In this document: positions 28,072-52,664 of the stretch, in pieces
Layout of the letters: every line of letters begins with the position of its first letter
Numbering within the stretch: position 1 is the first letter of the stretch
Source: Zygnema cylindricum
Lineage: Eukaryota; Streptophyta; Zygnematophyceae; Zygnematales; Zygnemataceae
Reading direction: 5' to 3'
NCBI GenBank assembly: GCA_037447655.1
Contig: JBBHKE010003463.1
Span: 33,263-97,262, forward strand
DNA: 64,000 bases
Notes under the pieces: model-generated
What the model was told of the DNA's origin: nothing
What the model saw: only the letters and a program-made list of their open reading frames with translations
The model's database searches: none
Program-made: the position numbers and the translations under genes

Positions 28072-28347
28072 ATGACGTTCGACAGGTTCCAGGATCAAAT
28101 CCTGGTGGCATCACTATTTCTTTGAGTAAATAAACTACCAAACTACCATTTAATAAATCAACTAATACGTTTCCCGTAAACCTCTGTATAGCCTAGGTAG
28201 CCATGGCTCTAGCTTCCTCTCCAACTTCGCAGTGAGTGTGACAAGTGTGGGAATTTGAGAGAGAAGTTAGAGATAGACTGCCTCAACTTTTTTCTGTATT
28301 TCTATTTAGACATAGTTAATTCTTAAAAAAGACCATCAATTTCTACA

Positions 28348-31110
28348 TTTGTCTCCTTTTACGCCTTCTGGAGGTCTATGATGGAGGAGTTCCTTCGCTG
28401 GAAGCAGGAGAACGTTGGTGAGGAGATGAGTAAGCAGGGACGTCGTATTTGTATGGTAAGACAGGTGGGCTCGGTGAACCACGGAACGCGGCAGCCAGAG
28501 AAACAAATGGCGAAAGAAAGGATCCTTGAGGTGGTAATGGTGGAGGAGTGGAAAGTCCGAGGGAAATGTGTTGTCTTCGGTCGGGTTGTAATAACACCAC
28601 GGCCTCAGCAGTTGAAGACCCAATCACTGAGACAAAAGAAGGACGCTCAGTGGTGGCGGCTGCAACGTTACCCGGTAGATCTGCACCCATCCCCTGTTTG
28701 TTAGGTCTTTTTGTCCCCCCCCCCTTCTCCCTCAAGGGGAGTCTCCGGTCTAAGTTCTGAGGAAGTCCTGGGAGCTGGCGCTTCGTAGGGGTTGTCTGTC
28801 CTGTATGTTGTCTCTCAGCGGAGGGACTTGTCACTCTAGAAGGAGCTACCTGTCCACTAAGGATCCCTCCTGATATTCGTCTAGCCTCTTTTATGAGGAA
28901 CAATTCTTGTTATAGGGCCCTCTTCGGTTCTTCTTCAAGGGCCTCCCAATCTATGGTGACGGGTCCAGCCCCCGCCGTAGCCTGACTCTATGATCGCAGG
29001 ATATCAACCAGTTTTTGTGTACTGCTCACCACCCCTAAGAGATCCGCAATCCCCAACCCCGATACCTTGGGATCAGTGGGTCTAAAACGCCACAACCCCT
29101 CAAATGGTCGAACCGCTGGTGAAGAGGGAGACCTTGAGCTCGGAGAGGCGGAGTCGGAAGGGAAGAACGGCTCCGCTTTAGGTAGGGGGGAGAACCTGCT
29201 CTTGCGGTCTCGATGGCCGAACCGGTACCCCTTCTTTGGCTCGAGTAACCCTCGCTTGCTGGTTCCTTCTGCGGCCCGTGTCCGAGGGATCGCCCCGCCG
29301 TGAGACAGCTTGCTGGTTGTGGTGTCCTGAGATTGGGTGGGATGATGGTAAGAAGTTGATGGCCCCTCAGTTGCTCCTGTACTGAGGTTGAGGAGCCGCT
29401 CTCGCACGAACTGCTAAGTATCTCCACTACACCTCCCACTAGGCGTACTACTTTTGCTCAGTTTGACGTGGCTACGTGTTGCACCAACTCCTTCTTAATC
29501 TTCAACTTATGGAGATTATAAGGGTTAAGATTACTTTGCGACCTGGATGGTTACGATCGGCCAAGATCTCTGGATCCATGTACATTTGAGCTATCGATGC
29601 CTTAGATCTGATATGGCCACCGATCTCGGGAAGGTGACCAGGGACCGCTTCCTTATGTGCCAACCACTTTCTACCAGAGCCACCGCTTCCTGCCTCTTCG
29701 CTCCTCCAATCTAACACCCGAAATATCCTTATCCTGAACTTCTCCTCCCACCATAGGGGACGGGAGAAGAAGATCTAAATCCCTTTATAAAAGTACTCCG
29801 CCCTGAGCACCTATCCTCTTTAACCTAAAGAGACAAGTTGCTGTTTCAGTATTGTGATGATCTGTTGAAAGTCTAACAAAAATCCTCTCAAAATCCACTA
29901 TTCTGGTACAAAAGATTCTGGTAATCGACCCCAGAAAAAACCCAACCGAAGTCCTAAAAAGGACTACCAAAGAGAGAACCAAGATACTTCCACTCAGAAA
30001 AATGAAAGGATAGAAATATAAAAATGCTATCTCAGATTTAACAATATCACCTTGCCCTTAGAAAAATAGAGAATAAAGTTAGAATGTGGAATAATAGCAA
30101 GCGAGCTCAACCTACCCCCAAAACGTAACGCGAACAACAAAAGGAGACGAAATCTCCCCCGGAAAACCTTGGAATAGGTAAGGCCTCCTTAACTCCTCGG
30201 TTTTTGCGACTCGGAACCGACAAGACCCTTCTTGGTTTCCAACAAACACCAGTCCCCAAATCGCCCAAAGCAAGAAAGACAGTGCCAACCACCCAACCGG
30301 ACTAAAATTTCCACAAAGAACGCATGAAACCCAATATGGCAATAAGGTCACAATCACATACAAACAAAAGTTCTCCACAAGAAAGTTTGCTGGAATTTCT
30401 AGGGTTTTTCTCAAGAGACAGTACTGAAACAACAATCTGTCTCTTTCGGCCCCAAGTGCCTTATACAAGCAAAGTTTCTCCTACAGACAAAGCCCAAGTC
30501 AAGCAATACCAGGAGCGAATCACCAGCCAGGAATTGTTATCGTACGGACATAAGACAAAACAGGTTGTACTACACTCAGGGAAAATAGTTAGGCGATTAT
30601 CTCCGGCTAGATTAGAAGCCACGTGTTTTTCAATGACACAATCCTAAGCAACAAAGTTCTAAATTGACGTGAAATGCCTAACTTTGACTTACATTAATAA
30701 ATGCTCTACACGGCTGGTGGACCTGAAATAACGTCCTACTGATAGTCAACAGCAAAATCTACGAGAATATTCCAAAATTTACGTGGCTTTCCACAATGTA
30801 GCCCCCAAAATGACAGGTGGCAAATGGTCGCAGGTAACAGGATAATAATCTTTGGAACTGAATAACTCCGTTGTTTGGCCTCCGTTAGGCCCGAAGTAAA
30901 GTGCGTTCCGCTCAGTTAAGAAAATAGAAGAATCTGGTCTGGCTGAGTGCCCTCCTTTCTCCGTACTTTAAAGACCGTATGGAGGGAAAAGGTCGGGATA
31001 TCTTTGGTAAGATAAAGAGGTGCCTGTGAATCACACGAGCTTGACTGAATCTGTACCGTGTAAAATATGTTTTGATTAGACAACCATCATTCTAACCGCC
31101 ACCCAAAGTG
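28348..31110 (-). mobile_element. Ty3/gypsy fragment (LTR/leader and gag amino part) on the minus strand
   Basis: From right to left it matches the LTR-like DNA of gypsy D (for example the ACTGAGCGGA..CGCACTTTA block, plus 50033-50055) and then the gag amino region of gypsy D (GGVVEILSSS, 29400-29430). The gag part ends at 28348, where copia B inserted or recombined. No RT is present. Together with gypsy D it forms a head-to-head pair. Confidence 0.7.
28380..29720 (-). pseudogene. gypsy gag amino-terminal part (minus strand)
   Basis: Frames at 29035-29439 (MGGVVEILSSSCESGSS) and 28376-28903 (KRPNKQGMGADLPGNVAAA..FVSVIGSSTAEAVVLLQP) align with plus-strand gag of element D at 33630-34700 (GGVVEILSSSSES; GLGADLLSGNASV..FVSVEVSTTVEALVEL). 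The region is Pro/Ser/Arg-rich and low in complexity. Frames shift several times, so it is not translatable as one protein. Confidence 0.65.
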
Positions 31111-33510: not shown

Positions 33511-36270
33511 TGACGGATCCACGTCAAAGATGGTCGTAAGGAACTCCTTGCCTTTCACGACCTCCATGAGCTCAAGGTGAAGAAGGAGTTGGTACAGAGA
33601 GTGGCTCAGACAGATCGAGTCAGATTGGTTAGACCCGTGGGAGGGGTGGTGGAGATTTTGAGCAGTTCTTCGGAGAGCAGCTCCTCACACTCGGTGCAGG
33701 ACTGGTCCCAGAGAGCCCCCTATTCTCGCCCTCCCCCATCTTCCTCTCAGGCCACCGCAGCAAGCACACCCACCCGAGAAGGTACCTCTTCTCGGCCTCG
33801 TAGAGTAGAAGGGGGTATCAAGAGGGAAACACGAGATCCATTGAGAGGGAAGAGGTTTGACCACCGTCAGAGCAAGGGGAGATTTGCACCGCTTCCCAAG
33901 GAGGAGACTTCCCCAACTCCTGTGTCCGCATCAACCGAGAAACCAACTCCTGCACCACCGCGTGACAGCCCTCCCGGAGGGCTCGGCGATCCGAACCAAT
34001 TGATCAAGAGGTTCCGGGTACGGGACTAGAAGATTTGTCCGAGGGGTGGTGGCGGACCAGACCCAATGATCCCAAAATTCCGGGAATCGAGATAGCGGAT
34101 CTTACCAAAGTAGTGGAAAAAGCCAAAGAACTAGTGGAGGATCAGAGATCGTAGGGACAGGCTACGGCGGGGGCCGAACCCGTCACGGTAGATTGGGAGG
34201 CCTTAGAGGAAGAGAGGCGAAAGGCATGGGAAACATGAATTGACGCTCATTAGCGAAGCTCCGCGTAGGACAAGTGTGATTCTTAGCGTGAAGATTCCTC
34301 CTACACTAAAGATAGGGCCGAATTCAGAATCTCCCGCAGCGGGGACTTCACCTCTCGCCAGTACCTAGCCTGAAATGCCTTATTCGAAGCAAAGCCAAAA
34401 TCCTCTCCTTCCGCGGAAAGGGGAGGAAATCACAAAACCTAATGTGGAGGGTTTAGGTGCAGATCTACTTTCGGGAAACGCTTCGGTTCTTCGGGGAGAG
34501 ACTACCTTTGTCTCGGTGGAGGTGTCTACTACTGTGGAGGCGTTAGTGGAGTTACGACCTAGCGAGAGGATTCACATTCCCTTGAGGGCTCCTGCACCAC
34601 CTCTCACTTCTCCCAGAGAATCCCCGGAGCCCCCATCTTTGGCTCCTCCACCTTATTCCTCTCACTCCTCGGAACACACCACAGGACCCCGAAGAGTCTA
34701 GATCCCTTTCATTCGCCATTCGTTTCTCCTGCTGCAGCTGTCCGTGGGTCGCCAGGTCCGCCTTTTTTGCCCTAGAAATACTACGTACCCGCCTATTCTC
34801 CTCCTCATCGACGCTCCTCTTCCTCTAGCTCCAGAACTTCACCTCCTAAGACCTCTAGAAGGCACAACAGGAGACAGACACCTTTCCCCGCAAGGGCTCG
34901 GCTGTCTTTGTCTCCATCTCCTTCGCCGTCTCCGCCACCAGCCATCCCCTAAAAGTCTGTGAACAAGCCACGTCTCCACCTCCCATCGGTGGCAACTGTT
35001 CTCCAGGATCCACAATATTCAGCTGGACATAGAGGAGTAGTGGGTGACATCCTACCTCCCACCATCTTTTCCTGCGCTGATACTTCCTCAGTGGGAGGGG
35101 GATCCACGCCACAGGGAGCCGCATTGTCTCGCAGAGAAGGACCCAGTTCCGATCCCAAGGAAGAGGATACTAGAGTCATCTCACCCAATCTATTTGTAAG
35201 CCCCACCGGGCCTTCCTCTTCCCATTTCACGAAATCTGCTGAGGAAGAAAAAGAGATGGGGTATATCTGGATCTTTACGGGAGACAGCTCGAGGATCGCT
35301 TTCTCGGATTTCGAGTTGTTGTGGAAATCGTTCACCCAATCTGAAATCAATAGATATAGCGGAGGAGCCATTCCGGATGACTTCGAAACCACCCTCTTCC
35401 CCATGATGGTCAACTACCTTTCTGGAGGGGTGTTGGCAGATTACAAGGAGCGTCAACCTCTTTTGATGGCTCTTAGCATTAAAATCTCGGATCCAGCCCT
35501 TGATGCCGATGTTTTGCAAGCAGAGGCTGACTTGGCCGCGGCTGCGGCGACCCTTGTGATTGCTACCTTTACACAGGGCATGAAACTACAGGCGCAAGGA
35601 AGTGCTTATGTTAACCAGCTGCAGGCGATCTAGGAAGCCGAGGGAGCAACTCGCATGGTGGCCAACCCAAACCCTTGTACCACCCTGCTAAATATCTAGA
35701 GACTCCTCTACACAGAGAGGAACGAGTTCGCAATCAAGGAATTGAGGGTATTCCAATGTTTGAAGAACGAGACTCCCCAGACTCTGTTTAACGGACTCTC
35801 AAGTCTCTTTCAAAAGACAAAGTTGTCCACGATTGATCTTCCGGTAATGGCCACAAAATATTTCATCCCTGTTTGTAATTCCTTTGGGACGACAAGGCAG
35901 ACTACACTGGATAATCAGATTGTAGGATAGGCAATTCGCGACATTAATCCCTCAGCCAAGGACATTTCAATGGTGTGTCCATAGTGAGGCAAGGGAGAAG
36001 GCCGTGACCAGCAAGGCCCGAGCAAATTTGGCAGGGTTCCTCAAGGAGACCTCTTTGAATGAGGAGGAAAAGGCTGAACTTCAAGCTTTCTGAAAGCTTA
36101 AAGGGAAGCAAGTGGCTCACAGCAAGTCAAAGCCAGCTATGGGAGCAGATGAGCGGGTATTTCTCTATGATTGCCTGAATTGTCAGCAACCGGGTCATGG
36201 GTGGTAGCATTGCACCAATAAACTTAAACCGAAGCTGGCTTTAAAACTTAAAGAATGGGAGAAAGAACGG
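33510..36270 (+). pseudogene. gag of gypsy D
   Basis: Open pieces at 33577-34029, 34375-34701, 34959-35633 and 35742-35930 cover a Pro/Ser/Arg-rich amino part and a helical middle (LADYKERQPLLMALSIKI). A nucleocapsid zinc knuckle follows at 36172-36213 (C-X2-C-X4-H-X4-C, CLNCQQPGHGW-stop-HC), with TAG inside the knuckle. Two frames are used, so at least one frameshift and several stops break it. The amino part has a second copy on the minus strand at 28380-29720. Gag would form the particle in the active ancestor. Confidence 0.7.
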
Positions 36271-36324
36271 GCAGAAAGAACTTTGAAACCAGATGTTTTC
36301 CAAACCAAGACTGGTAACGAGGAC

Positions 36325-37345
36325 TTCAATCTACAAGTGGTGTCATTGACAGTTCCCGACACCAGACTTCGTATTTTATCTTTATTTTTAGGAATTAGTT
36401 CCGACTTGGAAGCAGTTTTGAAATCAGGATATCGGGTGGAGTTATATACATTAGTCGAAATTTCACCGGCGGCCTAGGCAGTCAGCAAACACCGCCTCCA
36501 GCAATTGCACCGTTTAGTTCCTCAACAGCTTCCTATGTCTGCCATTTCCCAAGCTCACCGGAGTCTTCCCCAGATTCTGGATAACATAATGGCACCTGAT
36601 TTAGTTAGCTTGGGCAAAGTAGATACGGTGGTGGCGGGTTGGCCTTGTCCCTAGCAGGACAAGGAAAAGGGCATCAAGACTACAAGAGTGGCACATTCTA
36701 TCGGATGATTACATTAATATCTTGGATCCAGCAGATCCAGGACACACCAGTAGGGTACATCATGGAGAATGTCCACCTGGGAGATGATAGACGGGAAGAG
36801 GTTGCAGCGAGCTGGAAACATGTAACCCAAATTTTAGGAGCTCCCTTGGTTTATGACGCTGCTCACATGGGATCCGAGCACACAGACTCCGGGCATATTG
36901 GACCAATATTATCCCGCTTCCAATCCTTCGGCAATTGTTGGAAAAGTTGACCCCCGACCCTCAGATTTCAGTGCAAAAGATACTTGGGGAAGGTAGAATG
37001 GCAACACATGTAACGAAACCGGATCGTACTCCTTTCTTCCGATGCAATACACCCGGATATCCAAGCCGAGCCCTTCCTACGTTGGTCTCTTTTCCCCACA
37101 GTCACGCTTATCGGAAAGGAGCAAGTGGGATGATTTTTGACAGCAAAGCAAGAATTTGGACAGCACAACCATTTCGGACGGAGAACAAGCCATGGGATAC
37201 CATCCGAGAACCACAGCCGCACCAAGTATTTCAGACACACAAAGGTGCAGCTTAATAGGGCAGAGCATGGATTCGAATGCCATTACATGGGTTACAAAAC
37301 ACTCTCTTGCCTATTCCAATCTCCATTCTCCAGATTCACGCAGCA
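36325..37345 (+). pseudogene. C5 cytosine DNA methyltransferase domain, copy 1 (DNMT3/DRM-like) in gypsy D
   Basis: Motif I is LSLFLGISSDLEAVLKSGY (near 36375-36430). Motif IV reads GWPCP at 36640 because about 10 bases present in copy 2 are deleted after the catalytic Cys. Motif VI is MENVHL (36760). Motif VIII is frameshifted by one missing base near 36875. Motifs IX-X follow as KILGEGRMATHVTKP and a final QRCSLIGQSMDSN block (37240-37280). The family transfers methyl from S-adenosylmethionine to cytosine. This copy has motif I, unlike copy 2, but is inactive. The AHR-x-R-x-YW form of motif VIII in copy 2 suggests a DNMT3/DRM rather than DNMT1 type. Confidence 0.8.
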
Positions 37346-38400
37346 GCTACCTTCAAGCTCTTACATTGTTGTCCATGCAAGCAACTTTGCAGTTTGAGGG
37401 GGGGAGAGAGAGGAGAAAAATTCTACACCCTAGAGTTCCTTTGGTGGGGGGGAACGGTAGTTCAGAATGGGACAGCTTAGCGGAAGTTGTCAGTAGTAAA
37501 GTATTATCTGGAGGAGTAGAGGCGGATCCACACGAGGGGCTAGAATTCGACATCAACCTCTGGGGGAGACCATCGAAAGCTCGTGCCGCGATTGAGCCGA
37601 GAAAAATGGATTGGACTCTGGGGGAGTAGCTCAACCGTCAACAGAAAGAGCAGCTAACAGAACTCTTGGCCAGAAACAATCAGGTTTTCTCATGGTCAGA
37701 AACAGATGTCCGAATCTACAAAGGAACCCCCTTTAGGATTAATTTGATTGACGAAACCGCAACTGTCTGGAAGTAACAATATCCCATAATCTTCAAGGAA
37801 AAGGAGTTTATTAGCGCAAAAGTCCAAACTTTGGCGGACGCCGGGTAGGTTCAGGAAAACACCGGACTCCATGGGTTTACTTCCCCCACAGTTCTCCCTC
37901 CTAAGAAGGACTCGTCCGGGAAAACTGTGGATTTCCAAATGTGTGGGGATTACCACATGTTGAACACGACCACCATACCTGACCAGTATCCAATGCCAAC
38001 CCCGGAAGAGATATTCGACTCTCTTGCTGGAACCACTATCTTCTCCACCCTGGACATGAAGAATGGATTCCACCAGATTGCCATGGAACCGAAACACCGG
38101 GAGAGAACGGCATTATGGGCAAGATCCAGACTTTATGAGTGGATGTACATGCCCTTCGGACTGAAAAATGCACTAGCCAAGTTCTAACGGGCCATGGACG
38201 AAGCGCTCCGAGGAATCAATTGTGCCCGGTGCTACATCGACGATGTGATAATATTCTCCAAGACCTTTGAAGAACACCTAGAGCATATCCAGATCGTTCT
38301 CCGAGCTCTTCAAGCAGCGGGCTTGAAATGTCACCCGGGCAAGGGTATTTTTGGGGTGCAGAAAATTATTTACCTCGGACATGAGGTGACTCTTGGAACA
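37345..38400 (+). pseudogene. Linker and reverse transcriptase, copy 1, of gypsy D
   Basis: After a linker ending LEFDINLWGR comes the gypsy RT: LLARNNQVFSWSETDV, GFTSPTVLPPKKDS (about 37875), YPMPTPEEIFDSLAGTTIFS, TLDMKNGFHQIAMEPKHR, the catalytic CYIDDVIIFSK (38228-38260) and IIYLGHEVT (38370). TAG or TAA codons occur at 37627, 37774, 37845 and 38186. The sequence then switches within a few bases into DNMT copy 2 instead of continuing to the RT connection domain. Confidence 0.85.
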
Positions 38401-38404
38401 GTGG

Positions 38405-39345
38405 GTCTTGAAAACAAGATATCTGGTGGAGTCATACACAGCCGTGGAAGTATCTCTCGAGGCTAGGGATGTCAGCGAACATCGCCTCCACCAACTTTAT
38501 CACCAATATCCTCAACAACTTTCAGTATCCGCCTTCTCCAAAGCTCACCGTAGTCTTCCCCACAATGTAGAGAACATCATGGCGACCCACCTAGCCAGTT
38601 TGGAAAGAGTGGATTTGGTGTTGGCAGGCTGGCCTTGTCAAGGATACTCCTTAGCAGGACAAGGAAAAGGGCACCAAGACCGCAGAAGTGGAACCTTTTT
38701 TCGATTGATCGAGTTAATCTCAAGGCTTCAACAGCTCCAGGAAACGCCGGTGGGGTACGTTCTGGAAAATGTCCACCCACGAGATGATAAACGAAAACAG
38801 GTTGCGGACAGCTGGAATCATGTAACCCGGATCTTAGGGGCTCCCTTAGTTTTCGACGCCGCACAGCTGGGATCCCGGGCACACCGAGTCCGGGCATATT
38901 GGACCAACATGATCTCGATTCCAGTCCTCCTACAATTGTAGGAGAAAGAAATCCCCGACCCGAAAAATTGCGTTCAGCAAATACTTGGGGAAGGTAGAAT
39001 AGCCACACTTGTGACTCGACCCGATCGCCCACCTTTCTTCCAGTGCAACAGACCGGGATTCCCAAGGAAAGCCCTCCCAACATTGGTCTCTTACCCTCAC
39101 AATCACGCATATCGCAATGGAGCGGCAGGAATGATTTTTGACAACAAAGCACGACTCTGGACAACACGGACGATTGCCGAACAGGAAGAACCAATGGGAT
39201 TTCAGAAAGGAACAACAGCAGCACCAGGTATGTCAGACCTTCAGCGGTGCAGCCTTATGGGGCAAATTATGGATTTGAATTTGGTCACATGGGTACTCAA
39301 GCATGCACTCGCCTTTTCCAGTCTCACGTCCCTGGAATCACAGGC
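38405..39345 (+). pseudogene. C5 cytosine DNA methyltransferase domain, copy 2, in gypsy D
   Basis: A single frame from 38393 to 38941 carries motif IV AGWPCQGYSLAGQGKG (38628-38670) with the catalytic Cys, motif VI VLENVHP (about 38760) and motif VIII QLGSRAHRVRAYWTN (38865-38909). A TAG at 38939-38941 follows, where copy 1 has TTG (Leu). The same frame then continues through VQQILGEGRIATLVTRP and the motif IX-X region LQRCSLMGQIMDLNLVTW. Motif I is missing because the sequence is fused to RT copy 1 upstream. So the catalytic motifs are intact but the cofactor-binding start is lost and one nonsense codon is present. Confidence 0.87.
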
Positions 39346-40425
39346 TATTTACCTTCAAGCTCCTCATTTATTAGCGATGCAGGCAACTTTGCATCTTGAG
39401 GGGGGGAGAGCAAGGAGAAGAAAAACCAAACTTCACATTTTACCGCCGCAAGTTTTCCTAGCAGCGGGGGAGAGCGGCTCAGATGGCGACAGCCTACCGG
39501 AAGTTGTCAGCAGCACTGTGCTAGCCAGAGAGGTAGGGGCAGATCCACCGGTAGGGTTGGAATTCGACATTAACCTCTGGGTTAGATAGTCAGAAGCTTG
39601 GGCTGCCGTTGAGCCGGGGAAAATGGATTGGACCCTGGGGGAGCAGTTGAACACTCAGCAGAAGGCACGACTCTCGAAGCTGTTGGTCGAAAATAAACAT
39701 GTGTTCTCATGGTCAGAAACAGATGTCGATATCTACAAATGAACACCTTTCCGAATGGATTTGATTGACAAGTCGGCTACTTTTTGGCAAAGCAGTATCC
39801 TCTCAATTTGAGGGAAAAGGAATTCATCACGGCTAAAGTCCTGACATTGGTGGAAGCCGGATTGGTTCAGGAAAGTACCAGACTGCATGGGTTTGCTTCC
39901 CCGACAGTCCTCCCTCCTAAAAAGGACTCGTTCGGGAAAATTGTAGATTTTCGGTTGTGTGGAGACCATCGCATGCCGAACACGGCCACCATCTGTGACC
40001 GGTATCCGATGCCGACTCCGGAAGAGATATTCGACTCTCTTGCAGGTGCTACTATATATTCTACTCTGGACATGAAGAATGGTTTCCACCAGATTGCTAT
40101 GGAACCAAAGCACCGGAGAGAACTGCATTTTGGGCGGGTTCTAGACTTTATGAATGGATTTACATGCCTTTCCGGCTTAAGAATGCTCCGGCAAAATTCC
40201 AACGGGCAATGGACGAAGCGCTCCGAGAAAACGATTGTGCTGGTGCTATATTGATGATGTTATTATATTCTCAAAGACTTTTGATGAACACCTGGAGCAT
40301 ATCCAGATCGTTCTCCGCGCACTTCAAGCAGGGGGTTGAAATTGTCACCCGGGCAAAGGCATTTTTGGGGTGCAGAAAATCATTTACCTCGGACATGAGG
40401 TGACTCCCAGGACTGTGGGTCCCCA
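39345..40425 (+). pseudogene. Linker and reverse transcriptase, copy 2, of gypsy D
   Basis: The linker (LEGGRARRRKTKL.. to GLEFDINLW, 39570) is followed by RT: LLVENKHVFSWSETDV, GFASPTVLPPKKDS, YPMPTPEEIFDSLAGATIYS, TLDMKNGFHQIAMEPKHR. A one-base deletion near 40240 shifts the frame immediately before the YIDD motif. KIIYLGHEVTPRTVG closes the segment. Stops at 39588 and 39741. It is diverged from copy 1 throughout, so the two copies were separate for some time or came from different elements. Confidence 0.85.
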
Positions 40426-41007
40426 CATGGTCAAGGTGGCAGTCCTTAACGCTCTCCACCCACCAAAGGACATCTCGGCCTTTCGCACTTTTCTGGGTCT
40501 GGCCAATTACTATCGGCGGTTTATCCCAGAGTTAGTTGTCACGGCCAGCCCCTTAACCAGCTACTGCGGAAGGACCAAGAATGGCAGTGGGCCGAAGAAC
40601 AACAGATGTCCTTCCAGTTCTTGAAGGATGCTCTAAAGCAGCACACTGTGCTCCAGATGCCTGATCAACATAGACCTTTCCTCCTTTATACTGATTGGAG
40701 CAGGTTTAGATTGGGAGCGGTTCTGGCTCAAGTCGATGATGCTGGAGCTGAATATGTGGTGGCCTACGTCAGTAGGAGCAACAACATGGCAGAGGGGAAT
40801 TATAGCAGTTACCACAAAGAGTTACTCGCAGCGTTTTGGGCCATCCAACATTTCCGGCCTTATTTGTACATAATCCATTTCACACTGATTACGGATCTGA
40901 AACCCTTGAAATGGATCATGGAAAATAGTAAGTTAAGCGGCAAAGTCGCCAGATGGGTTCTTATCATGCAGGAATATAATTTCGACATTGTTCATAGGGC
41001 AGGGGAG
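40425..41007 (+). pseudogene. RT connection and RNase H of gypsy D, cut by copia E
   Basis: PPKDISAFRTFLGLANYYRRFIPEL (connection domain) leads to RNase H: LYTDWSRFRLGAVLAQVDD (usually TDAS..GIGAVLSQ), VAYVSRSNNMAEGNYSSYHK and FDIVHRAGE. The frame ends at the copia E insertion (TSD 41003-41007) and resumes at 47911 with the expected DGLS segment. Confidence 0.85.
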
Positions 41008-42067
41008 TGTAGAAATTAATGATCCGTTTAAAGTATTTTCTAGGTCTAAATATAAATATATAAAGAAGCCGAGGCAGTCTACCTCTAACTTCTCTCTCCA
41101 ACTCTCAAACTTGTCGCAGTCACTGAGAAATTGGAGAGGAAGCTAGAGCCATGGCTACCTAGGCTATCCAGAGGTTTACGGGAAATATATATTAGTTTAT
41201 TTACAATTAGGGGTTTATTTACTAAAAAGATATGTGCCGGCCATAGGATTTGATCTTGGTACCTGCCGGCCGGCAAGTAGCCGGTAGCCTTAGCCGTTAA
41301 GTCTTCAACTAGTGTTACGTACGATATGGTTTAATATTTACTTAAACATTACCAAGTAGGATAATTCATTTAACTGTAATTGTTTACGGGATACATAGAT
41401 CCAGTAATGTAAAAGTACGGATTACGGTACGGATAAGAAACCAATTCCGCGCATTTATTTCTTTAGGGAAACGAATACCGCGCATGAATTTATTACGGCT
41501 ACGATTAAATGTGAATTTAATCGGACGGCCGGAATTAACTCCGAGATCGCCGAAGAGGATTTCGGCGGTTTTTGGTCATCGCCACATCGGATGACACGTG
41601 GAGGAATGACATTGGATCGCAGCATCTCTGAGGATTAAGGGAGCGAATCCGGATATACCACGTGTCGACATTTAGGCCATGTCGTACAGTGTCCGTACAG
41701 AAAGTACATCGGCAGCTGTATTTTTGTGTACGCAGGTGTAATCTGATTGGCTCCGTACATCAAAAACTAGAGTCTATGAGAGAGATAGGACTTAGAAAAA
41801 TTAGGAGATAGGATCCTCTCTCCTAGAGAGCTTCTATACAAAAGGTCAACTTTGACCCTCCATAACTTACTGCCCAGGGGAGAAAATTCAGAGATTCTTT
41901 TTGCTATTGACTCAGGGGAGTCTTGCCTTTACATGGGTGAAGGTGGTCAGAGTTATTGTCTACCAGGGCGGCGGTTGTTTTTGATCAAACACAAAGGTGA
42001 CAAAGTTATCCTAGATGCTTCTTGGAAGCTGTCCACTCTGAGGACTTATGGAGGTCTCAAAGTTGCA
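41008..42067 (+). repeat. 5' LTR of copia E
   Basis: TGTAGAAATTAATG..AAGTTGCA, 1060 bp. Contains a minus-strand tRNA-like segment (B-box at 41246-41256) and, at its 3' end, the ATG (42048) of Gag. Matches 46845-47905 with scattered substitutions. Confidence 0.93.
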
Positions 42068-43000
42068 GGTTATGGGCCCATCCTATAGGGTACCAATGTT
42101 TAATGGACCTGGCTTCATATACTGGGAAAGTATGATGATAGTAGCTCTATGCGAAAAAAGGTTTTGGGGGATAGTGAGTGGACGATTGGGGCGTCCATCA
42201 AGTCTTGGAATCCCTTCAGGGTTTGGAGGAAGCAGATTCACCAGGAAAGAGGATCCACCTTCAACGGAGGAAACAAAGGAAGGAGAGGTGGTGGACAAAG
42301 GAAAGGAGAAGGAGACGACCACACCAATAGCAACTGGTTCGGCATTCATGTCACCTATTCCGAGGAACGAGGAGAATGATACTGAAACCTGGGACTTCAA
42401 CAATATGGCGGCAAAGCACATCATCCTACGCCATCTCACTCAAGGACTTCAATGTCCTCATTTGCAGGTAGAAAGGACATCCGATCTTTGGATGGCTCTC
42501 ATAGAGATGTACCGAAGTGGTACGATTCAGAAACAACAGTTGGCTGTTCACAAAGTTAAGGAGTATGTATACAAAGGGGGAAAGATGTTGGATTTTTGCA
42601 ATGAGCTTGCTACACTCTTCATGGAGCTAGAGAGTGCGGGAAAAGATTTTAGTGAAAAAGAAAAGGTTAACTGTTTATTGATGAAGTTACTCGATGAGTT
42701 CGAGAACATAGTCAACCGTGTGCAGGACTTGCCGGACTGAAGGTGAATATGGAACTCAGTGGTAGGGATGATTCTCGTTCGGGAGAATACGATTGAGATT
42801 CGAAGGGGAGGAAAGAGTGGCCAAGCCTTGGCAACTGCGACCGATTGGACGAACAAGGATTCCGGGAAACCGGTCGGAAACTATGGGGGGAGGGAGCAGA
42901 AAAATCAGACCGACGAGTTCGGACCAAGGGCTCCCAAAGGTTTATGTCATTTATGTAAGAAACCTGGGCACTTTATGGCAGAGTCACTAAGCTAACCGAG
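42048..43000 (+). pseudogene. gag of copia E
   Basis: The frame opens at the ATG at 42048 inside the LTR and runs 230 codons to a TGA at 42738, with UBN2-type Gag features (FIYWESMMIVALCEKRFWG; HIILRHLTQGLQCPHLQVER; MLDFCNELATLFMELE). The rest is in another frame, with a zinc knuckle at 42945-42986 (CHLCKKPGHFMAE). Its last Cys is lost through a one-base deletion compared with the GAGTGT of copia A. An LTR-internal start fits a transcript beginning upstream in the LTR. Confidence 0.8.
42068..42080 (+). other. Primer-binding site of copia E
   Basis: GGTTATGGGCCCA directly after the LTR, complementary over 13 bases to the anticodon arm of initiator tRNA-Met as remembered. The same bases encode Val-Met-Gly-Pro within the Gag reading frame. 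Confidence 0.75.
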
Positions 43001-43194
43001 CTTCGGTTAAAGGAGGGGCAGACCGGTGGTACCCCGAGAGGAAAGAAAAAGGCCCTTGTGACAGAAGTACAAGAGGCGAATCTGAGGACGAGGACGATGA
43101 ACTCCTTTTAGATGAGGAGTTGGAGGCGAAAAACGAGGTCGAAATTCCACGAAGGCAGAAATGTGCTTACGGTGGATTGAAAGGTGAAGCAGGC

Positions 43195-44484
43195 TAGATT
43201 ATAGATTCAGGTGCCTCTATGCACATGTGTAAGGATAGGCACCTGTTCACTAAGATAAGAAAGATTCCCACCGTAGAGATAGAGTACGGGGGTGGGAGGA
43301 TAGTCACCACTACTCTTGTAGGATCGGTAGATTTGAAAGTGTTAGTAGAAGGAAAGACATCCATAGTAACATTCTCTGATGTATTGTTTATTCCGGAGCT
43401 GAAGAAAAACCTCATCTCTGCATCAGTATTAGATGATAAGGGTTTTTTTACTAGCACTAGGGAAGGAGTCTTTACTGCTAGTTTTAAGGAGGATGTCTAT
43501 GTCATTGTTGAGAAAGGTAGCCATGGGATGTTTAGGTTGGTTTTAAGTAATGAAACGAAGAAACTTTATTATGTTGGTGTTCATGATATTATGATGTGGC
43601 ATAAGAGGCTTGGGCATGTGAATCTAGATAAGTTAAGAGAGATGAAAAAGATGGGAGTGGTGGAAGGGATTAAGTTCAGTGAGAGTGATAATATAAGTGA
43701 TTGTAGTGGATGTGCTCAAGGTAAAACACACAGATTACCCTTTCCTAAAACAACCACCTATAAGGGAGAAAAAATTCTAGATTTAATACACACACATATA
43801 TGGGGACCGGCTAAAACGCCCTCACCGGGGGGGAAGAGATTTATGATGACTATCACTGATGATTGGTCTCGGTATTCTCGGGTGTGTTTTTTGAAAAACA
43901 AGTCAGAAGCTCAGGATTGTTTTAGACAATATAAAGCATGGAGTGAAAAACTCCATGAAACTCCAATCAAGAGAGTAAGGAGTGACAATGGTGGGGAGTA
44001 TACTTCTAACCAGTTTGAGGATTTTCTGAGGGAAGATGGAGTCCAACACCAAAAGACAGTTCCAGAAAACCCGCAACAGAATGGGGTAGCTGAAAGGTTA
44101 AATAGAACACTAAGTGATAGTGCTAGAAGTATGTTGATAGATAAAAAGATAGGAAAAAGGTTTTGGGCAAAAGCAATGAACTGTGCTAATTACCTCAAAA
44201 ATAGAGTTCTTACTTCAGCTATAAAAGATCAAACACCATATGAGAGATGGACAAGCCGGAAACCAGACATATCTCACTTAAAGGTTTTCGGCAGTCAAGT
44301 ATCCAGTCTAGATACAGATCGGTCCAATTGGAAGCTAGATCGTAAAGGAAAACCGGGATACTTATTAGGATATGATGAGGATGTTAAAGGATATAGAGTT
44401 TACGATCTAAAAAGGGAAGATATAATCTTAGTAAAGCATCTAGTAGTTATGGATGAAGGAAAGTCTACGGATCCCTTCAAGTAA
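43195..44484 (+). pseudogene. Protease-integrase of copia E
   Basis: The aspartic protease site IIDSGASMHMC lies at 43198-43230 (DSGA 43204-43215) and is preceded in frame by TAG at 43195, where relatives have Trp. From there the frame is open for more than 420 codons: integrase zinc binding MWHKRLGHVNLDKL..CSGCAQGK, then the DDE core DDWSRYSRVCFL, SDNGGEYTSNQF and AERLNRT, and the copia-typical GAEVFGSQ-like tail (LKVFGSQVSSLD). It ends at 44482-44484. This is the best preserved coding block of the element. Confidence 0.88.
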
Positions 44485-45280
44485 ACACAGTCAGTAAAAA
44501 TCAGATTTGAGTCAGAAAATTTCAATGACTTTGAGCTTCCTAACTATCCAGGTTTTAGCAAAAATGACATTCTTGCAGGTACAAATCAGACCAAAAAGGA
44601 CTCGGCTGTGGAAACTCTAGTGACAACTTTACCCGAAGCGGAAGACGTAGTGGAAATTGATTCGGAATCAGGGGATAGGGGAGAAGCCGAGATTGTTAGA
44701 AAGAATCCACGAGAACCATCTATTCCGGCCTCAGATTTTGAGGGGGGGAAAGAGAAGTAGCAAAAGATTGCAAGAAAAATAAGTTAATAACAAGGTAACA
44801 AAACTATCTCATCAAGATGAACCTCAGACTTATGGAGAGGCGATGACTTGTCCTTAGTAAAGCATCTAGTAGTTATGGATGAAGGAAAGTCTACGGATCC
44901 CTTCAAGTAAACAAAGTCAGTAAAAATCAGATTTGAGTCAGAAAATTTCGATGACTTTGAGCTTCCTAACTATCCAGGTTTTAGCAAAAATGACATTCTT
45001 CCAGGTACAAATCAGACCAAAAAGGACTCGGCTGTGGAAACTCTAGTGACAACTTTACCCGAAGCGGAAGACGTAGTGGAAATTGATTCGGAATCAAGGG
45101 ATAGGGGAGAAGCCGAGATTTTTAGAAAGAATCCACGAGAACCATCTATTCCGGCCTCAGATTTTGAGGGGGGGAAGGAGAAGTAGCAAAAGATTGCAAG
45201 AAAAACAAGTTAATAACAAGGTAACAAAACTATCTCATCAAGATGAACCTCAGACTTATGGAGAGGCGATGACTTGTCCA
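44430..45280 (+). repeat. About 425-bp tandem duplication between integrase and RT in copia E
   Basis: The segment starting AGTAAAGCATCTAGTAGTTATGG at about 44432 is repeated from about 44857. Both copies run through TCAAGTAAACA, GACTCGGCTGTGG and GAGGCGATGACTTGTCC with few differences. The join is clean: CTTGTCC is followed by TTAGTAAAG in copy 1 but by AGAAAGAAACTGG in copy 2. It reads as a recent direct duplication. Confidence 0.85.
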
Positions 45281-45282
45281 GA

Positions 45283-46830
45283 AAGAAACTGGTGGAAGAC
45301 AGCCATCAATGAGGAGATGGCCTTAATTATGGCAGCCGATACTTGGGAGCTGGTGGATTGTCCACCTAACCGAAAAACCAATCGGTTGTAAGTGAGTTTT
45401 CAAATTAAAACTGAACCGAGATAACACAATCGAGCGCTACAAGGCCAGATTAGTGGCAAAGGGATTTACACAAAAGGAGGGAATTGACTACGGGGAAACC
45501 TTTGCCTCGGTCGTCATATTTCCCTCCGTCCGCATACTTCTCAGTCTCGCAGCAGCGGAAGACATGGAAGTGCACCAGATGGACATCAAGACAACCTTTT
45601 TGCATGGAGAATTGGACGAGGAGATCTTCATGCGATAACCCAAAGGGTTTGTGGAGGAAGGAGAGGAGAGTAAGGTATGCCAGCTGATTAAATCTCTTTA
45701 TGGTTTGAAAGAGGCGCCTCGACAATGGAATAAGAAGCTTGATGAGTTTCTTATCGGTCTGGGATATATCCGGATCAGCTCAGATCACTCAATCTATGTT
45801 TTCGAAGATGAGGAAGGTTATATATTTATTGCAATTTATGTTGATGATTTGCTTGTTTTAATTAAATCAATGGAAAAAATTAATAAACTGAAAACCGATC
45901 TTAAGGGGAGATTTGAAATAAAGGATATGGGGGAAGCAAAATATATTTTGGGAATTCAAGTAGAGAGAGACTGAAAAAGAAATATTATAAGATTGACTCA
46001 AAATGAAGCAATAGGGAACATGCTTGAAAAAATTCAGATGGATAAAGCTAATAGTTGTACAACTCCAATGGAGTTGAAGAAGGGAAGTGAGGGGAGTGAG
46101 GAAGAAGGAGTCATAGTCTTAGACGAGGAATTATCTCCTGATGAACAGAAGTTCATGCAGACTATTCCTTACAGGCAAGTAGTGGGAAGTCTAATCTATT
46201 TTATGAATTGTACCCGGCCGGATTTAGCTGCAGCTGTAGGAGTGCTGAGTAGAAGTCTAAATGCTCCCACTAAGAAGGATTGGGAGGCAGCTAAGAGAGT
46301 CCTTAGATATTTGGTAGGAACTAGGGATCTATGGTTGCATTTGGGTGGGGAGAATACTGACATCACTACTTGGAGTGATGCCAGTTATGGTGATGCTCCG
46401 ATGAGGAGATGCACTTCTGGATATGTATTATATGTGGGTGATGGGGCTTGCTGTTGGAGTAGCAAACAGCAAAAAGTTATTGCTCAGTCCACCATGGAGG
46501 CAGAGTATATGGCCTCTTACTCTGCTGTAAAAGAATTGATGTGGGTCAAGTCTTTGCTTGGTGAGCTTGGTCACCTTAAGAGTGGTGTGCAAATTTCTTT
46601 TTGTGATAATCAGGCAGCAATCGCTATTTCTGCCAATCCTAAACATCATTTTAAAGCCAAACGCATGGACATTAGACTCAGCTTTGTTAAAAGAAAGTAG
46701 AAAACAAAATAATGAGTATAGAGTACCGACCAGTTACTGAGATGGTAGCAGATATGATGACCAAACCTGTGCCTTCCTCTAAGCTAATTTTCTGCAAGGA
46801 GAAGTGTGGTCTGAAATTAAAGATTGACTA
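45283..46830 (+). pseudogene. Reverse transcriptase and RNase H of copia E
   Basis: RT: TWELVDCPPNRKTN (frameshift after it), VAKGFTQKEGIDYGETFA, MDIKTTFLHGELDEEIFM, stop at 45636, SLYGLKEAPRQWNKKLDE, catalytic YVDDLLVL (45840-45865), then a TGA at 45972. RNase H from 45993: DASYGDAPMRRCTSGY, EAEYMASYSAVKE, SFCDNQAAIAISANPKHHF. The tail DMMTKPVPSSKL is in a shifted frame. Four to five lesions in all. Confidence 0.88.
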
Positions 46831-46831
46831 G

Positions 46832-46844
46832 AAAATAAGGGGAG
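46832..46844 (+). other. Polypurine tract of copia E
   Basis: AAAATAAGGGGAG immediately upstream of the 3' LTR; the usual site of plus-strand DNA priming. Confidence 0.8.
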
Positions 46845-47905
46845 TGTAGAAATTAATGGTCCGTTTAAAGTATTTCCTAGGTCTAAATAGAAATATAGAA
46901 ATAAGCCGAGGCAGTCTACCTCTAACTTCTCTCCCCAACTCTCAAACTTGTCGCAGTCACTGAGAAATTGGAGAGGAAGCTAGAGCCATGGCTACCTAGG
47001 CTATCCAGAGGTTTACAGGAAATATATATTAGTTTATTTAGCGTTAGGGGTTTATTTACTAAAAAGATATGTGCCGGCCACAGGATTTGATCCTGGTACC
47101 TGCCGGCCGGTAACTAGCCGGTAGCCTTAGCCGTTAAGTCTTTAACTAGTGTTACGTACGATATGGTTTAATATTTACTTAAACATTACCAAGTAGGATA
47201 ATTCATTTAAGTGTAATTGTTTACGGGATACATAGATCAAGTAATGTAAAAGTACGGATTACGGTACGGATAAGAAACCAATACCGCGCATTTATTTCTT
47301 TAGCGAAACGAATACCGCGCATGTATTTATTACGGCTACGATTAAATGTGAATTTAATCGGACGGCCGAAATTAACGCCGAGATCGCGGAAGAGGATTTC
47401 GGCGGTTTTTGGTCATCGCCACATCGGATGACACGTGGCGGAATGACATTGGATCGCGGCATCTCCGAGGATTAAGGGAGCGAATCCGGATATACCACGT
47501 GTCGACATTTAGGCCGTGTCGTACAGTGTCCGTACAGAAAATTACCCAGAAAGCTGTACTTTTGTGTAGAGAGGTGTAATCTGTTTGGCTGCGTACATCA
47601 GTAGATAGAGTCTGTGAGAGAGATATGACTTAGAAAAATAAGGAGACAGGATCCTCTCTCCCAGAGAGCTTCTGTATAAAAGGTCAACTTTGACCCTCCA
47701 TAACTTACTGCTCAGGGGAGCAAATTCAGAGATTCTTTTTGCTATCGACTCACGGGAGTCTTGCCTTTACAGGGGTGAAGGTGGTCAGAGTTATTGTTTG
47801 CCAGGGTGGCAGTTGTTCTTGATCAAACACATATGTGACAAAGTTATCCTAGAGGCTTCTTGGAAGCTGTCCACTCTGAGGACTTATGGAGGTCTCAGTG
47901 TTGCA
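46845..47905 (+). repeat. 3' LTR of copia E
   Basis: TGTAGAAATTAATGG..GTGTTGCA, 1061 bp, followed by the GGGAG duplication. The B-box on the minus strand is at 47083-47093 (GGATCAAATCC). Confidence 0.93.
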
Positions 47906-47910
47906 GGGAG

Positions 47911-49437
47911 ATCCATGGGAATGTCGACGGACTTAGCTTGAATCTTGATCCCTCCACCATGGATTCTACCGGGGCTCGGCATGATGACGACCCAGAGATC
48001 ATCTTTGGAATCATTCGAGCCTCCTCCGTTTTAATCTGGCTTCCCCAATCTGGGGGGGAACCGTCAACTTTTTCTGCCGTTTTGGTGGGGCAGGTGCCCA
48101 TAGGGGTCGAACGGAAGGACATCTGGAACGACCCCGATGCTCTCCAATCTATCCAGTAGGGGTCACCCCTTCCCACTTCACTGGAGTTTCGTTATTCGGG
48201 TACAAACCCAGACGGCTGTGTATGATTAGGACAAAGGCGTTCTCTTTCGGAAATGGTCAGACGGTACGAGGAAAGTGGTTTCTCCCCCCTCTGACCGAGA
48301 AACTCTGATTTCTAATCTCTATTGGCAATGTGGACACTTCAGGCAAAAGCGGACCACTTCCCTTGTTATGGGCTCTTATTGGTGGCATGGGTTGCGGACC
48401 CAAGTCAAACGAATTGTTCAAACTTGCTCCTCATGCGATCGCGTAAAGGTAACTTTTGACAAGAACGGCGGGACTGAGCTTCATTCGCTGCCTATCCGAG
48501 GGATGTTTTATCTGTGGTCGTTGGATCTTTGGGACCCCTTCCGACCAGGAGGCGGGGGAACCGCTTTGTGCTGGTCATGATAGAAATTTTTTCTAAGTGG
48601 ATCGAGTTGGTGGTTTTGCCCAGGAAGGAGTCCAAGGCAATTGTAAATGCCTTTTTGCAAAGGGTGCTGGCCCAATTCGGAGCGCCTGCGGAAGTTCTGA
48701 CCGACCAAGGCTCCGAATTTGCCGGAGAATTTCCCAACCTCTTGGAAAAATGCTTTGTCGACCATCGGCTGACCAGCCGAGACCACCCTCAAGCGGACGG
48801 TTTAGCTGAAAGGTGCGTATAGACAGTGAAGCGGTCACCACGAAAATATGCCGTGGAGGAAGATTAGGGGGGGTGGGACAAAAAAGTGCCTTGGATTACT
48901 ATGGGTTACAAATTTAGCAGGTAGGCTTCTCTCCACTCCTATAGCTCTTATTTCATTCTATTTCGACGACATCCCATCTTGCCCAAAGCTGCATCCGCCT
49001 AAGCGGTGGTCCTACCGGAGATGGATGACAAGGGGATTGTCGAAAAACTGATCGCCGACAGGGCCAAGGTATTCCACCGAGAGATGCCTCTCGCCATGGG
49101 CAATTTGCAGGCAGCTCAACACCGAGATCAATTGTGGTATTCTCAGCGCCGTAGTGGGAATTATCTGCCCCGGCACCGACGATTTATGCCGGGAGACTTT
49201 GTATATCGAATGCAACAGAAGAAGGACACGCTGGATATTTTTGCCGGGAGAGTAATATTGAAAGTGGTCGAGGTGTCCAACAAAGGGGTTCTTACATTGG
49301 AGGGGAAAGATGGTCGACGAATTAAAGAGAATCAGATCAATGTGGCCCCCTGCCATCTTCGGGGATTGGAAGACGAACCAACTTTCCACTTAACTTACTG
49401 TGCCGATCCTCCCTCTTGTTCATCAGCTTGCAATTAG
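47911..49437 (+). pseudogene. Integrase of gypsy D (after the copia E insertion)
   Basis: The coding sequence resumes with GNVDGLS (end of RNase H linker). A zinc-binding region is seen as GHFRQKRTTSL, YWWHGLRTQVKRIVQ and CSSCDRVK. The catalytic core shows WSLDLWDPF, then after a frameshift near 48540 VLVMIEIFSKWIEL, LTDQGSEFAGEF and ADGLAERCV (D, D and E positions). A stop follows at 48820. The carboxy part KVVEVSNKGVLTLEGKDGRRIKE is at 49250-49330. No chromodomain is visible. Confidence 0.82.
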
Positions 49438-49613: not shown

Positions 49614-51165
49614 TGAAATTGGGATAACAGCCCGATTACCGAGACCCTAATACCTTCCCTGCGCCAGGGGGGGGGAGGAAGGAGGAGGGGATAACTTTCG
49701 CCTTCCCCTTGCCCTCATCCTTATTCCCTGCGCATGCATCTCTCCTATTTTGCATACATATCTATGAGAGGGATGTGGGCAGTAGTGGGTATGATCATCA
49801 TTTTGGGAAGCATTCGCATTCGGAGTTTATTTGCAGGACTCCAATGTCGACGAATCTGTGCTTCGGGCCCTTCCCTCATGTTCATCATGCAGGCCCGACA
49901 GCTGTCAAGCTCAGGTGCTTTTCAGGCATACCTTTATATCACCAAGGATTTCCGGGCCCTTTTTACTCTGTACAGTGTTCAGAGTATGGAGGAGTGAGTG
50001 CACCAAGCCGTACGAGATCGTGGTATTTCCTAAACTGAGCGGATCGCACTTTATTTGGCACGAAACAGAGGCCGGACGACAAGGTTCTACCGTCTCTAAG
50101 ATTGCAATTCCGTTACAAAGAACCATTTGCCACCAGCCCCCGTGGGGGGTACATTGTGGATTGCCACGTAACTTTCCGGATTTGCATTTAGATTATGCTA
50201 GTAGGCGTCAGTAGGAATTTAGTTCAGCCTCAGCCGACTTTTTGTCCATTAATTACGTTAGGTCAAAGTCTGGCAAGTTAGTGTCATTTTCAGGATTTTG
50301 TCTTATAATTGTGGACCGAATAATTACTTCTGGCCGCGGATCTAGCTGCAGTCTGGAGCAGAACTTTTTGCCCTAAGTGTAGAACGGATTAATTTGTCTT
50401 GTGTCAGTTTAATTACACTTGCTTGCCGCTCATTGGTTAATAGCGTAGCTTTGACTTTCGGACTTGCAATTTGACAAACTTTGATGTATAAGGCACTTAG
50501 GGTCGAAGGAGACAGGTTGCTTTTTAGTACTGTCTCTTGTGAAAACCCTAAAAAATGCCAACAAACCTTCTTTTGGAGAATCTTTGTGTTGTTTCCGACT
50601 TTATTGCCATCTTGGTTTTGGATCTGTCTTGTGTGGGAATCACAGTCCGGGCGCGTAGTTGGCACTATCTTCCTTTTTGGGTGATTTTGGATTTTTTGCT
50701 GTTTGGAACCGAGAAGAGTCTTGTCGGTTCCGAGCTGCGAACACCGAAGGTTGCGGGAGTACCATACCTTTTGACGATACTCTCAGGAGAGGGTTCTCCT
50801 TTCTCTAATTGTCATCGTTGATTGCCGGGGTATGTTAAACTTGCTTCGCTACATTTCATATTTCATACCTTTTATTCTCTTTTCTGGGGCAAGGTGATAT
50901 TGTTAAATCTGGAAAGCCAATCCTATTTATTTATATATATCTACGTGATAGTGCATTTGTGTCTTCATCTGGAGTTCTCTTTGCTTTGGAGTTACTGTTC
51001 CGGAGTGAACTGAAACCCCCTTTGATCAGGACAGTGGGTTTTGAGGGAACAAGTGCATTCGGGGTTTATTTGCAGGACTCCAATGCCAACGAATCCGTGC
51101 TTCAGGCCCTTCCCTCACGTTCATCAGGCACGCTCAACAGCGAGTTTACGGGGAAAGTACAATAA
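49614..51165 (+). repeat. Probable 3' LTR / terminal region of gypsy D
   Basis: A purine tract AAGAGGGGG precedes TGAAATTGGGATAAC at 49614, as expected for an LTR start. Much of the following sequence matches the minus-strand gypsy fragment (30100-31080). A direct repeat of about 100 bases lies at 49806-49912 and 51050-51155 (GGACTCCAATG..AACGAATC). The right boundary and any target duplication could not be fixed. Open frames here have no recognised product. Confidence 0.5.
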
Positions 51166-52589: not shown

Positions 52590-52664
52590 GTGCCTATCAG
52601 TGGAAAGATGAGGTTGTTCACAGGATAGTGCCTATCAGTGGAAAGATGAGGTTGTTCACAGGAT
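52590..52664 (+). repeat. Two perfect 38-bp tandem copies
   Basis: GTGCCTATCAGTGGAAAGAT.. followed by GAGGTTGTTCACAGGAT occurs at 52590 and again at 52628, identical apart from the last base. It makes a recent slippage duplication. Confidence 0.9.

What the first reader, a model, noticed from the sequence alone, without database searches (positions are those of the whole stretch)
36325..39345. Ty3/gypsy retrotransposon carrying a C5 cytosine DNA methyltransferase
Two diverged copies of a methyltransferase catalytic domain lie between gypsy gag/RT segments in the same orientation. Copy 2 has the motif IV catalytic loop GWPCQGYS, motif VI ENV and motif VIII SRAHRVRAYW. Copy 1 has a motif I-like LSLFLGISSD. 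The motif VIII form resembles DNMT3/DRM enzymes. A DNMT inside a retrotransposon could methylate the element's own DNA copies or affect host silencing. I recall a report of DNMT capture by retrotransposons in charophytes and dinoflagellates, so this may belong to that phenomenon or be a new lineage.
Basis: partly seen in the sequence, partly recalled or inferred. Interest (0 to 1): 0.92.

Follow-up and report, generated by a model that had tools for sequence, protein, structure and literature searches.

The report
Jumping gene carrying DNA methylation enzyme
This is the wreck of two fused copies of a plant or algal jumping gene that carries its own DNA-methylating enzyme; relatives in the same genome look recently active, and their end repeats suggest an unusual route of insertion through DNA circles.

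Summary
Window 36325-39345 carries two copies of a C5-methyltransferase domain, each followed by gypsy-type reverse transcriptase; integrase and a PHD-finger remnant lie beyond a nested copia insertion. The kind is known: KnitGypsy-Dnmt3 of Klebsormidium (PMC5890265). Both window copies are dead: copy 1 has stops and frameshifts, copy 2 lacks SAM-binding motif I and has one stop. The double arrangement was found only here (39 of 39 other scored host places break at the junction); the two copies diverged under selection before fusion.

The host genome (352.8 Mb) gives 123 scored DNA_methylase matches, many in long open frames. Ten of ten fetched copies carry DNMT-RT-RH-INT-PHD. The DNMT is under purifying selection (dN/dS 0.14-0.16 in the two unsaturated pairs). 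The best copies have split direct repeats, A-int-B-A-B, TGTC...GACA ends and 4-bp target duplications. The inner B-A junction reads GACA-NN-TGTC, and a purine tract precedes B. This fits integration from a permuted, probably circular, cDNA by a DDE integrase, normally a tyrosine-recombinase strategy; that step is inference. Relatives occur in Marchantia, Calypogeia, Closterium, Cymbomonas and metagenomes. New variant of a known kind; host not identified.

The parts
33532..36200 (+). broken gag/protease region of the upstream (5') element
   Evidence: 70-78% nucleotide identity in blocks to the matching region of host copies C544 (L016) and C1374 (L018); no Pfam hit
36292..37323 (+). DNMT copy 1: motif I present (LSLFLGISSD at about 36379), then stops and frameshifts
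   Evidence: tblastn of P0001 in three frames
37640..38404 (+). RT fragment of the upstream element, cut off at the junction
   Evidence: RVT_1 1.2e-8; 78-80% nucleotide identity to L016/L018
38404..38407 (.). fusion junction between two elements, up to 4 bp overlap
   Evidence: 39 of 39 other scored host places match only one side
38405..39320 (+). DNMT copy 2: motifs IV, VI, VIII, IX, X; motif I missing; one stop at 38939-38941
   Evidence: Pfam 1.6e-10
39637..40420 (+). RT of the downstream element, frameshifted
   Evidence: 70-83% identity to P0001 RT in three frames; 78% nucleotide identity to L016/L018 over 39601-41000
40450..41002 (+). gypsy-type RNase H
   Evidence: RT_RNaseH 2.5e-32
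41003..47910 (.). nested copia element with LTRs (93.8% identical) and 5-bp target duplication GGGAG (41003-41007, 47906-47910)
48134..49425 (+). integrase: H2C2 zinc finger, rve core, C-terminal part; frameshifted
   Evidence: Pfam 1.5e-12 and 1.3e-11; tblastn of P0027/P0034/P0051
49426..49560 (+). PHD-finger remnant behind the integrase (one stop read as X within it)
   Evidence: Pfam PHD E=8.2e-6, 26.2 bits against cut-off 24
49801..49900 (+). split repeat B1, ending in GACA; no purine run recognisable before it in this copy
49901..51039 (+). 2-bp spacer GC (49901-49902) and repeat A2 starting TGTC
   Evidence: junction GACA-GC-TGTC; A2 aligned end to end with 31054-29883(-)
51040..51139 (+). 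split repeat B2, ending in AACA
   Evidence: 83% to B1
29883..31054 (-). repeat A upstream of the gag-like region of a second, minus-strand relative (read as its A1)
   Evidence: 819 identities, 302 mismatches against A2; homology stops at the B1 and B2 borders

Best explanation
SHOWN: the locus is a dead fusion of two subfamilies of a Ty3/gypsy-type retrotransposon whose pol encodes PR-DNMT-RT-RH-INT-PHD. The family is present in many copies in this genome, some recently inserted; its DNMT is under purifying selection; and the best copies are bounded as A1-int-B1-NN-A2-B2 with TGTC...GACA ends and 4-bp target duplications. INFERRED (about 0.5): the purine tract before B1 starts the plus strand, giving cDNA with B-A terminal repeats; its ends are joined into a two-repeat circle; the DDE integrase cuts at a GACA-NN-TGTC site between B and A and inserts the permuted linear form. 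INFERRED (about 0.35): the DNMT, carried as part of pol, methylates this extrachromosomal DNA before integration and so protects it or marks it as self, while the PHD finger steers integration to particular chromatin.
For: 10 of 10 fetched copies have DNMT, RT, RH, INT in this order and a PHD match behind INT (E up to 0.002). One copy has a 2395-aa frame without a stop. A1/A2 identity 100, 99.6 and 99.5% in three copies. B1/B2 pair with GACA-NN-TGTC between B1 and A2 in 8 of 20 copies, ninth with one base changed. 4-bp duplications TTGG, AAGG, CCCT, ACGT in 4 of the 7 copies in which both ends could be placed. Purine run directly before B1 in both subfamilies. DNMT dN/dS 0.16 and 0.14. Catalytic Cys, motif VI Glu and two motif VIII Arg in 56 of 56 rows. 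Two window copies differ at 15.2/13.3/39.4% of codon positions 1/2/3. Junction unique among 40 scored places.
Against: 11 of 20 copies showed no B pair in the stretches fetched (some stretches may not reach it or are broken). Of the 7 copies with both ends placed, C449 has 3 of 4 bases and C1042 and C1374 no duplication. No tRNA-type primer site after A1, so the U5 border rests on repeat ends alone. No circle was observed. CpG depletion, expected from self-methylation, is seen in subfamily ii (0.66-0.67) but not in i (0.90-0.92). The Klebsormidium DNMT showed no activity in yeast, called inconclusive by its authors (PMC5890265).
Confidence: 0.8

Rival explanations
1. No circle: an unusual reverse-transcription scheme makes a linear cDNA that already has A-int-B-A-B ends, and the integrase uses it in the ordinary retroviral way.
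For: TG...CA ends and short target duplications are those of ordinary integrase elements; no primer site was found, so the scheme is unknown.
Against: The purine tract sits before B1, not before A2; the inner junction has the exact form of joined element ends with two bases between; A1/A2 and B1/B2 are both kept near-identical.
Confidence: 0.3
2. The double DNMT is a tandem duplication within one element, perhaps with a role.
For: The two copies are head to tail over 2.0 kb.
Against: Codon-position pattern shows divergence while coding; each side has its own 92-96% relatives and no other scored place spans the junction; copy 2 lacks motif I.
Confidence: 0.03
3. The fusion is an assembly error joining two separate elements.
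For: The junction is unique among the places scored, and repeats of this kind are prone to misassembly.
Against: No Ns in the window; an overlap of up to 4 bp is usual for a real illegitimate join (general knowledge). Not tested with reads.
Confidence: 0.12
4. The DNMT serves counter-silencing or benefits the host (slower transposition) rather than acting on the element's own cDNA.
For: Purifying selection fits any function; the host-benefit idea is raised by PMC5890265.
Against: Nothing here separates it from self-methylation.
Confidence: 0.3

Closest known systems
KnitGypsy-Dnmt3 of Klebsormidium nitens (de Mendoza et al. 2018, PMC5890265; text parts 1-4 of 7 and passages read)
   Same: Unrearranged Dnmt3-type DNMT inside the pol ORF of a gypsy element, DIRS-like order of repeats with gypsy domains (Fig. 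4 legend), purifying selection on the DNMT
   Different: Host differs; here a PHD finger behind the integrase (the word PHD is absent from that paper's main text), exact ends, target duplications and the GACA-NN-TGTC junction; its sequences were not obtained, so kinship was not measured
SymbioDIRS-Dnmt3 of Symbiodinium (same paper)
   Same: DNMT3-type domain in pol of an element with split repeats A-int-B-A-B
   Different: Tyrosine recombinase there; DDE integrase and target duplications here
Gypsy-type polyproteins of Marchantia, Calypogeia, Closterium (P0021, P0018, P0025, P0058)
   Same: DNMT of the same clade, behind the protease and, where the protein reaches that far, before RT
   Different: 38-46% identical in the DNMT to P0001; separate clades from the host's elements; their repeats were not examined
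IS3/IS30-type circle junctions of bacterial insertion sequences (recalled, no call)
   Same: DDE enzyme and abutted element ends with a few bases between
   Different: Unrelated elements; here the abutted ends are part of the resident element

Membership tests
KnitGypsy-Dnmt3-like elements | DNMT inside pol of a gypsy element (RT, gypsy RNase H, rve integrase) | tested here: met
KnitGypsy-Dnmt3-like elements | DIRS-like order of repeats A-int-B-A-B | tested here: met
   A1, B1, A2 and B2 all found in host copies C1344, C829, C1915, C449; B pair around A2 in 9 of 20; window keeps B1-A2-B2
KnitGypsy-Dnmt3-like elements | Purifying selection on the DNMT | tested here: met
   dN/dS 0.16 and 0.14 in two pairs; within subfamily i dN 0.11-0.17 with saturated dS
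KnitGypsy-Dnmt3-like elements | Common descent with the Klebsormidium elements | not tested
   no K. nitens element sequence was among the hits listed; length limits of the search may hide them
DNMT3 | Motif order I-IV-VI-VIII-IX-X without rearrangement | tested here: met
   order read in P0001 and host copies; residues tallied
DNMT3 | Closest structure DNMT3A/3B | tested here: met
DNMT3 | Groups with DNMT3 in a tree | tested here: inconclusive
   DNMT3A, the only DNMT3 used, had a long branch and fell with bacterial rows (91/87), not with the retro-DNMTs
DRM | Rearranged catalytic motifs | tested here: not met
   motif I precedes motif IV in copy 1, P0001 and host copies
DIRS | Tyrosine recombinase instead of a DDE integrase | tested here: not met
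   rve integrase in the window and INT in 10 of 10 host copies, 4-bp target duplications; a tyrosine recombinase was not searched for by name genome-wide
DIRS | Split direct repeats | tested here: met

The most novel reading that the evidence does not exclude
A retrotransposon lineage with a retroviral-type DDE integrase that integrates from a circular cDNA, cutting at abutted ends (GACA-NN-TGTC) inside its own terminal repeat. It has converged on the split-repeat, circle-based life cycle of DIRS elements, and it carries a DNA methyltransferase and a PHD chromatin reader. Methyltransferases, of cytosine or adenine type, may then be a general accessory of retroelements that pass through naked DNA circles.
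Probability: 0.45. Interest if true: 0.87.

Novelty: new variant of a known kind. Interest (0 to 1): 0.7.

Why it matters
Why a retroelement keeps a DNA methyltransferase, the mark that usually silences it, has been open since the 2018 report. This genome makes it testable: it holds recent copies, and two subfamilies whose DNMT is under selection. The permuted ends point to a circular intermediate for a DDE integrase, which would blur the split between integrase elements (linear DNA) and recombinase elements (circles) and would tie the methyltransferase to that circle. The family is also wider than the charophyte and dinoflagellate reports seen here: liverworts, Closterium, Cymbomonas and many metagenome proteins.

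Tried and rejected
Host-gene DNMT beside a retrotransposon: rejected, since 10 of 10 fetched copies carry the DNMT within an RT/INT unit; these ten were picked for long frames, so some of the 123 matches may still be host enzymes (L008, for one, shows only a weak match). Two-DNMT element design: rejected. Tandem duplication of a dead copy: rejected. DRM: rejected on motif order. Repeat A as an ordinary LTR with B2 as chance: rejected, since B flanks A2 in copies of both subfamilies; the copia element nested in the window has ordinary LTRs and a 5-bp duplication, and no long repeat flanking its LTRs was listed.

Led nowhere: copia ORF search to name the host (best 63% over 57% of the query, no near species). 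Viral contigs: one hit, an ordinary DNA_methylase (Pfam 2.3e-34). RT tree of 13 rows on whether the two DNMT positions are one acquisition: inconclusive. No TGG-type primer site directly after A1 in 5 copies looked at. CpG depletion as a sign of self-methylation: mixed.

Claims that something is not in print rest on searches of the held library only. Seen: PMC5890265 (parts 1-4 of 7 and passages) and passages of PMC12344493 (it speaks of DNMT3 in LTR 'Copia' and DIRS elements), PMC9998398, PMC9516144 and PMC8566409. All other papers were seen as listings.

Rows dropped: the first tree used 46 of P0001-P0062, eight further hits, three typed outgroups and the window copy 2 (58 rows); the rest were partial or cut. 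Row P0064, put in as outgroup, fell inside the retro group. The second tree left out six outgroup rows, host copy C783, the four minus-frame loci L002, L003, L006, L009, and the short L001 and L008 pieces (61 rows).

Full report
What was claimed and what is there. Both are real. Copy 2 passes Pfam DNA_methylase at 1.6e-10. Copy 1 passes no Pfam threshold in its pieces but aligns to the same homologue in three frames. The two lie in a direct duplication of 2.0 kb, about 75% identical, that also covers the first part of the reverse transcriptase. RNase H follows copy 2. A copia element with a 5-bp target duplication then interrupts pol. The integrase resumes behind it and ends in a PHD-finger remnant.

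Both window copies are dead. Copy 1 keeps motif I but has stops and frameshifts. Copy 2 keeps motifs IV to X but begins just behind motif I, because the sequence before it is the RT of the upstream element; it also has one stop. A search of the host genome with 421 bases across the junction gave 40 scored places of 766 candidates. The window alone spans the junction. Of the other 39, 31 match only the RT side (93-96%) and 8 only the DNMT side (92-96%), and all break at the same four bases. The two window copies differ at 78 of 514 first, 68 of 511 second and 201 of 510 third codon positions (p=1.6e-21), so they diverged while coding. The simplest reading is one illegitimate join of two neighbouring or co-packaged elements of different subfamilies. 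A misassembly cannot be excluded here.

The family. The window piece found 14 proteins; relative P0001 found 1550, of which 120 were listed. Named sources of the retrotransposon type are Marchantia polymorpha, Calypogeia fissa, Closterium NIES-53 and NIES-54, and Cymbomonas; most others are metagenomes or unnamed. Two pol layouts occur: DNMT between protease and RT (liverworts, Closterium, P0001, this host), and DNMT between RNase H and integrase (Cymbomonas, P0029 and others). In eight proteins a PHD finger follows DNMT and integrase. In the tree of 58 rows the retro-DNMTs form one group (100/99), which also takes in P0064, entered as an outgroup; DNMT3A falls with the bacterial rows, on a long branch. 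The second layout is one clade (97/91, 96/91, with some rows of unknown layout inside). The window copy sits with host subfamily ii (100/100) near P0001. Catalytic Cys, motif VI Glu and two motif VIII Arg are kept in 56 of 56 rows. A model of member P0016 (pLDDT 84) matches DNMT3A/3B best.

The host genome. It has 352.8 Mb in 2689 contigs. The DNA_methylase profile gives 123 scored matches of 782 candidates, a lower bound that may include host enzymes. Ten copies with long frames were fetched in two stretches each. All 10 show DNMT, RT, RH and INT in that order and a PHD match behind INT; gag/protease was recognised in 8 of 10, not in C544 and C1374. One copy has a 2395-aa frame without a stop, which by its coordinates runs from gag to PHD. 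There are two subfamilies: (i) with DNMT about 40%, and (ii) with DNMT 53% and RT 78-81% identical to P0001. The window belongs to (ii), at 67-80% nucleotide identity in DNMT, RT and INT. A third lineage is L004. DNMT dN/dS is 0.16 and 0.14 in the two pairs that are not saturated (RT: 0.02 and 0.12); the other pairs within subfamily i have dN 0.11-0.17 with saturated dS.

Ends and repeats. In the best copies the element runs A1-int-B1-NN-A2-B2. A1 and A2 are 100, 99.6 and 99.5% identical in three copies. The element starts TGTC and ends GACA. Of seven copies in which both ends could be placed, four have perfect 4-bp target duplications (TTGG, AAGG, CCCT, ACGT), C449 has 3 of 4 bases, C1042 and C1374 have none. 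B1 and A2 meet as GACA-NN-TGTC: the element's own 3' end, two bases, its own 5' end. This was seen in 8 of 20 copies, and in a ninth with one base changed; the other 11 showed no B pair in what was fetched. A purine run stands directly before B1 in both subfamilies. The window keeps B1-GC-A2-B2, without a recognisable purine run. A minus-strand relative in the window keeps an A repeat upstream of its gag-like region, and the A homology starts and stops at the B borders.

How it probably works. If the purine run primes the plus strand as usual, cDNA ends up with B-A repeats at both ends. The integrated form is not that molecule but a permuted one. Joining the cDNA ends and cutting at one GACA-NN-TGTC site gives A-int-B-A-B with the two spacer bases lost, and this is what is found. 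So the anatomy fits a circular intermediate opened by a DDE integrase (inference, about 0.5). The primer of the first strand is unknown: no TGG-type site follows A1. de Mendoza et al. noted in a legend that the Klebsormidium repeats are those of a DIRS element while the domains are gypsy; the parts of that paper read here draw no mechanism from it. The same paper recalls that DIRS elements elsewhere carry adenine methyltransferases, which suggests a link between such circles and DNA methylation (inference). For the DNMT the likeliest role is methylating the element's own DNA before integration, as that paper proposed. The CpG evidence here is mixed: observed/expected 0.66-0.67 in subfamily ii, 0.90-0.92 in i, 0.91-0.96 at the window ends outside the nested elements.

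Verdict. The kind is already known. What is new, as far as the nine library searches show, is the PHD reader next to the DNMT writer, the exact ends and the permuted junction, with genome-wide support.

Noticed in passing
window 44427-45279: Tandem duplication of 427 bp, 98% identical, inside the nested copia element.
   Followed up: no
window 5000-12525: Exons of a subtilase gene with fn3_6 domain (Pfam), probably the host's, spread over 7.5 kb.
   Followed up: partly
window 57763-62509 (-): Large remains of another copia element with long open pieces (ORFs of 346, 274 and 206 aa).
   Followed up: no
window 27245-31054 (-): Fragment of a second gypsy element in the opposite orientation (gag-like region and repeat A), without a DNMT match.
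   Followed up: partly
P0007 (476 aa, metagenome): Its N-terminus looks by eye like a DIRS-type RNase H, yet its DNMT falls within the RH-DNMT-INT clade of gypsy elements (weak support inside). If real, DNMTs moved between DIRS and gypsy elements. Pfam sees no RNase H there.
   Followed up: partly
retro-DNMT family, 56 rows: Catalytic loop reads W-E-C-Q instead of W-P-C-Q in 16 of 56 rows (P 40, E 16), for example in Closterium P0025 and P0058.
   Followed up: no
host subfamilies i and ii: CpG observed/expected differs between subfamilies of similar layout: 0.90-0.92 against 0.66-0.67.
   Followed up: no
host copy C1374 (L018/L019): Element followed by B and then other DNA without A2-B2, with a second B-A-B 3.7 kb on; perhaps an A-int-B insertion from a one-repeat circle, or a rearrangement. 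The tested target duplication did not match.
   Followed up: partly
window 52589-52664: Perfect tandem pair of a 38-bp unit.
   Followed up: no
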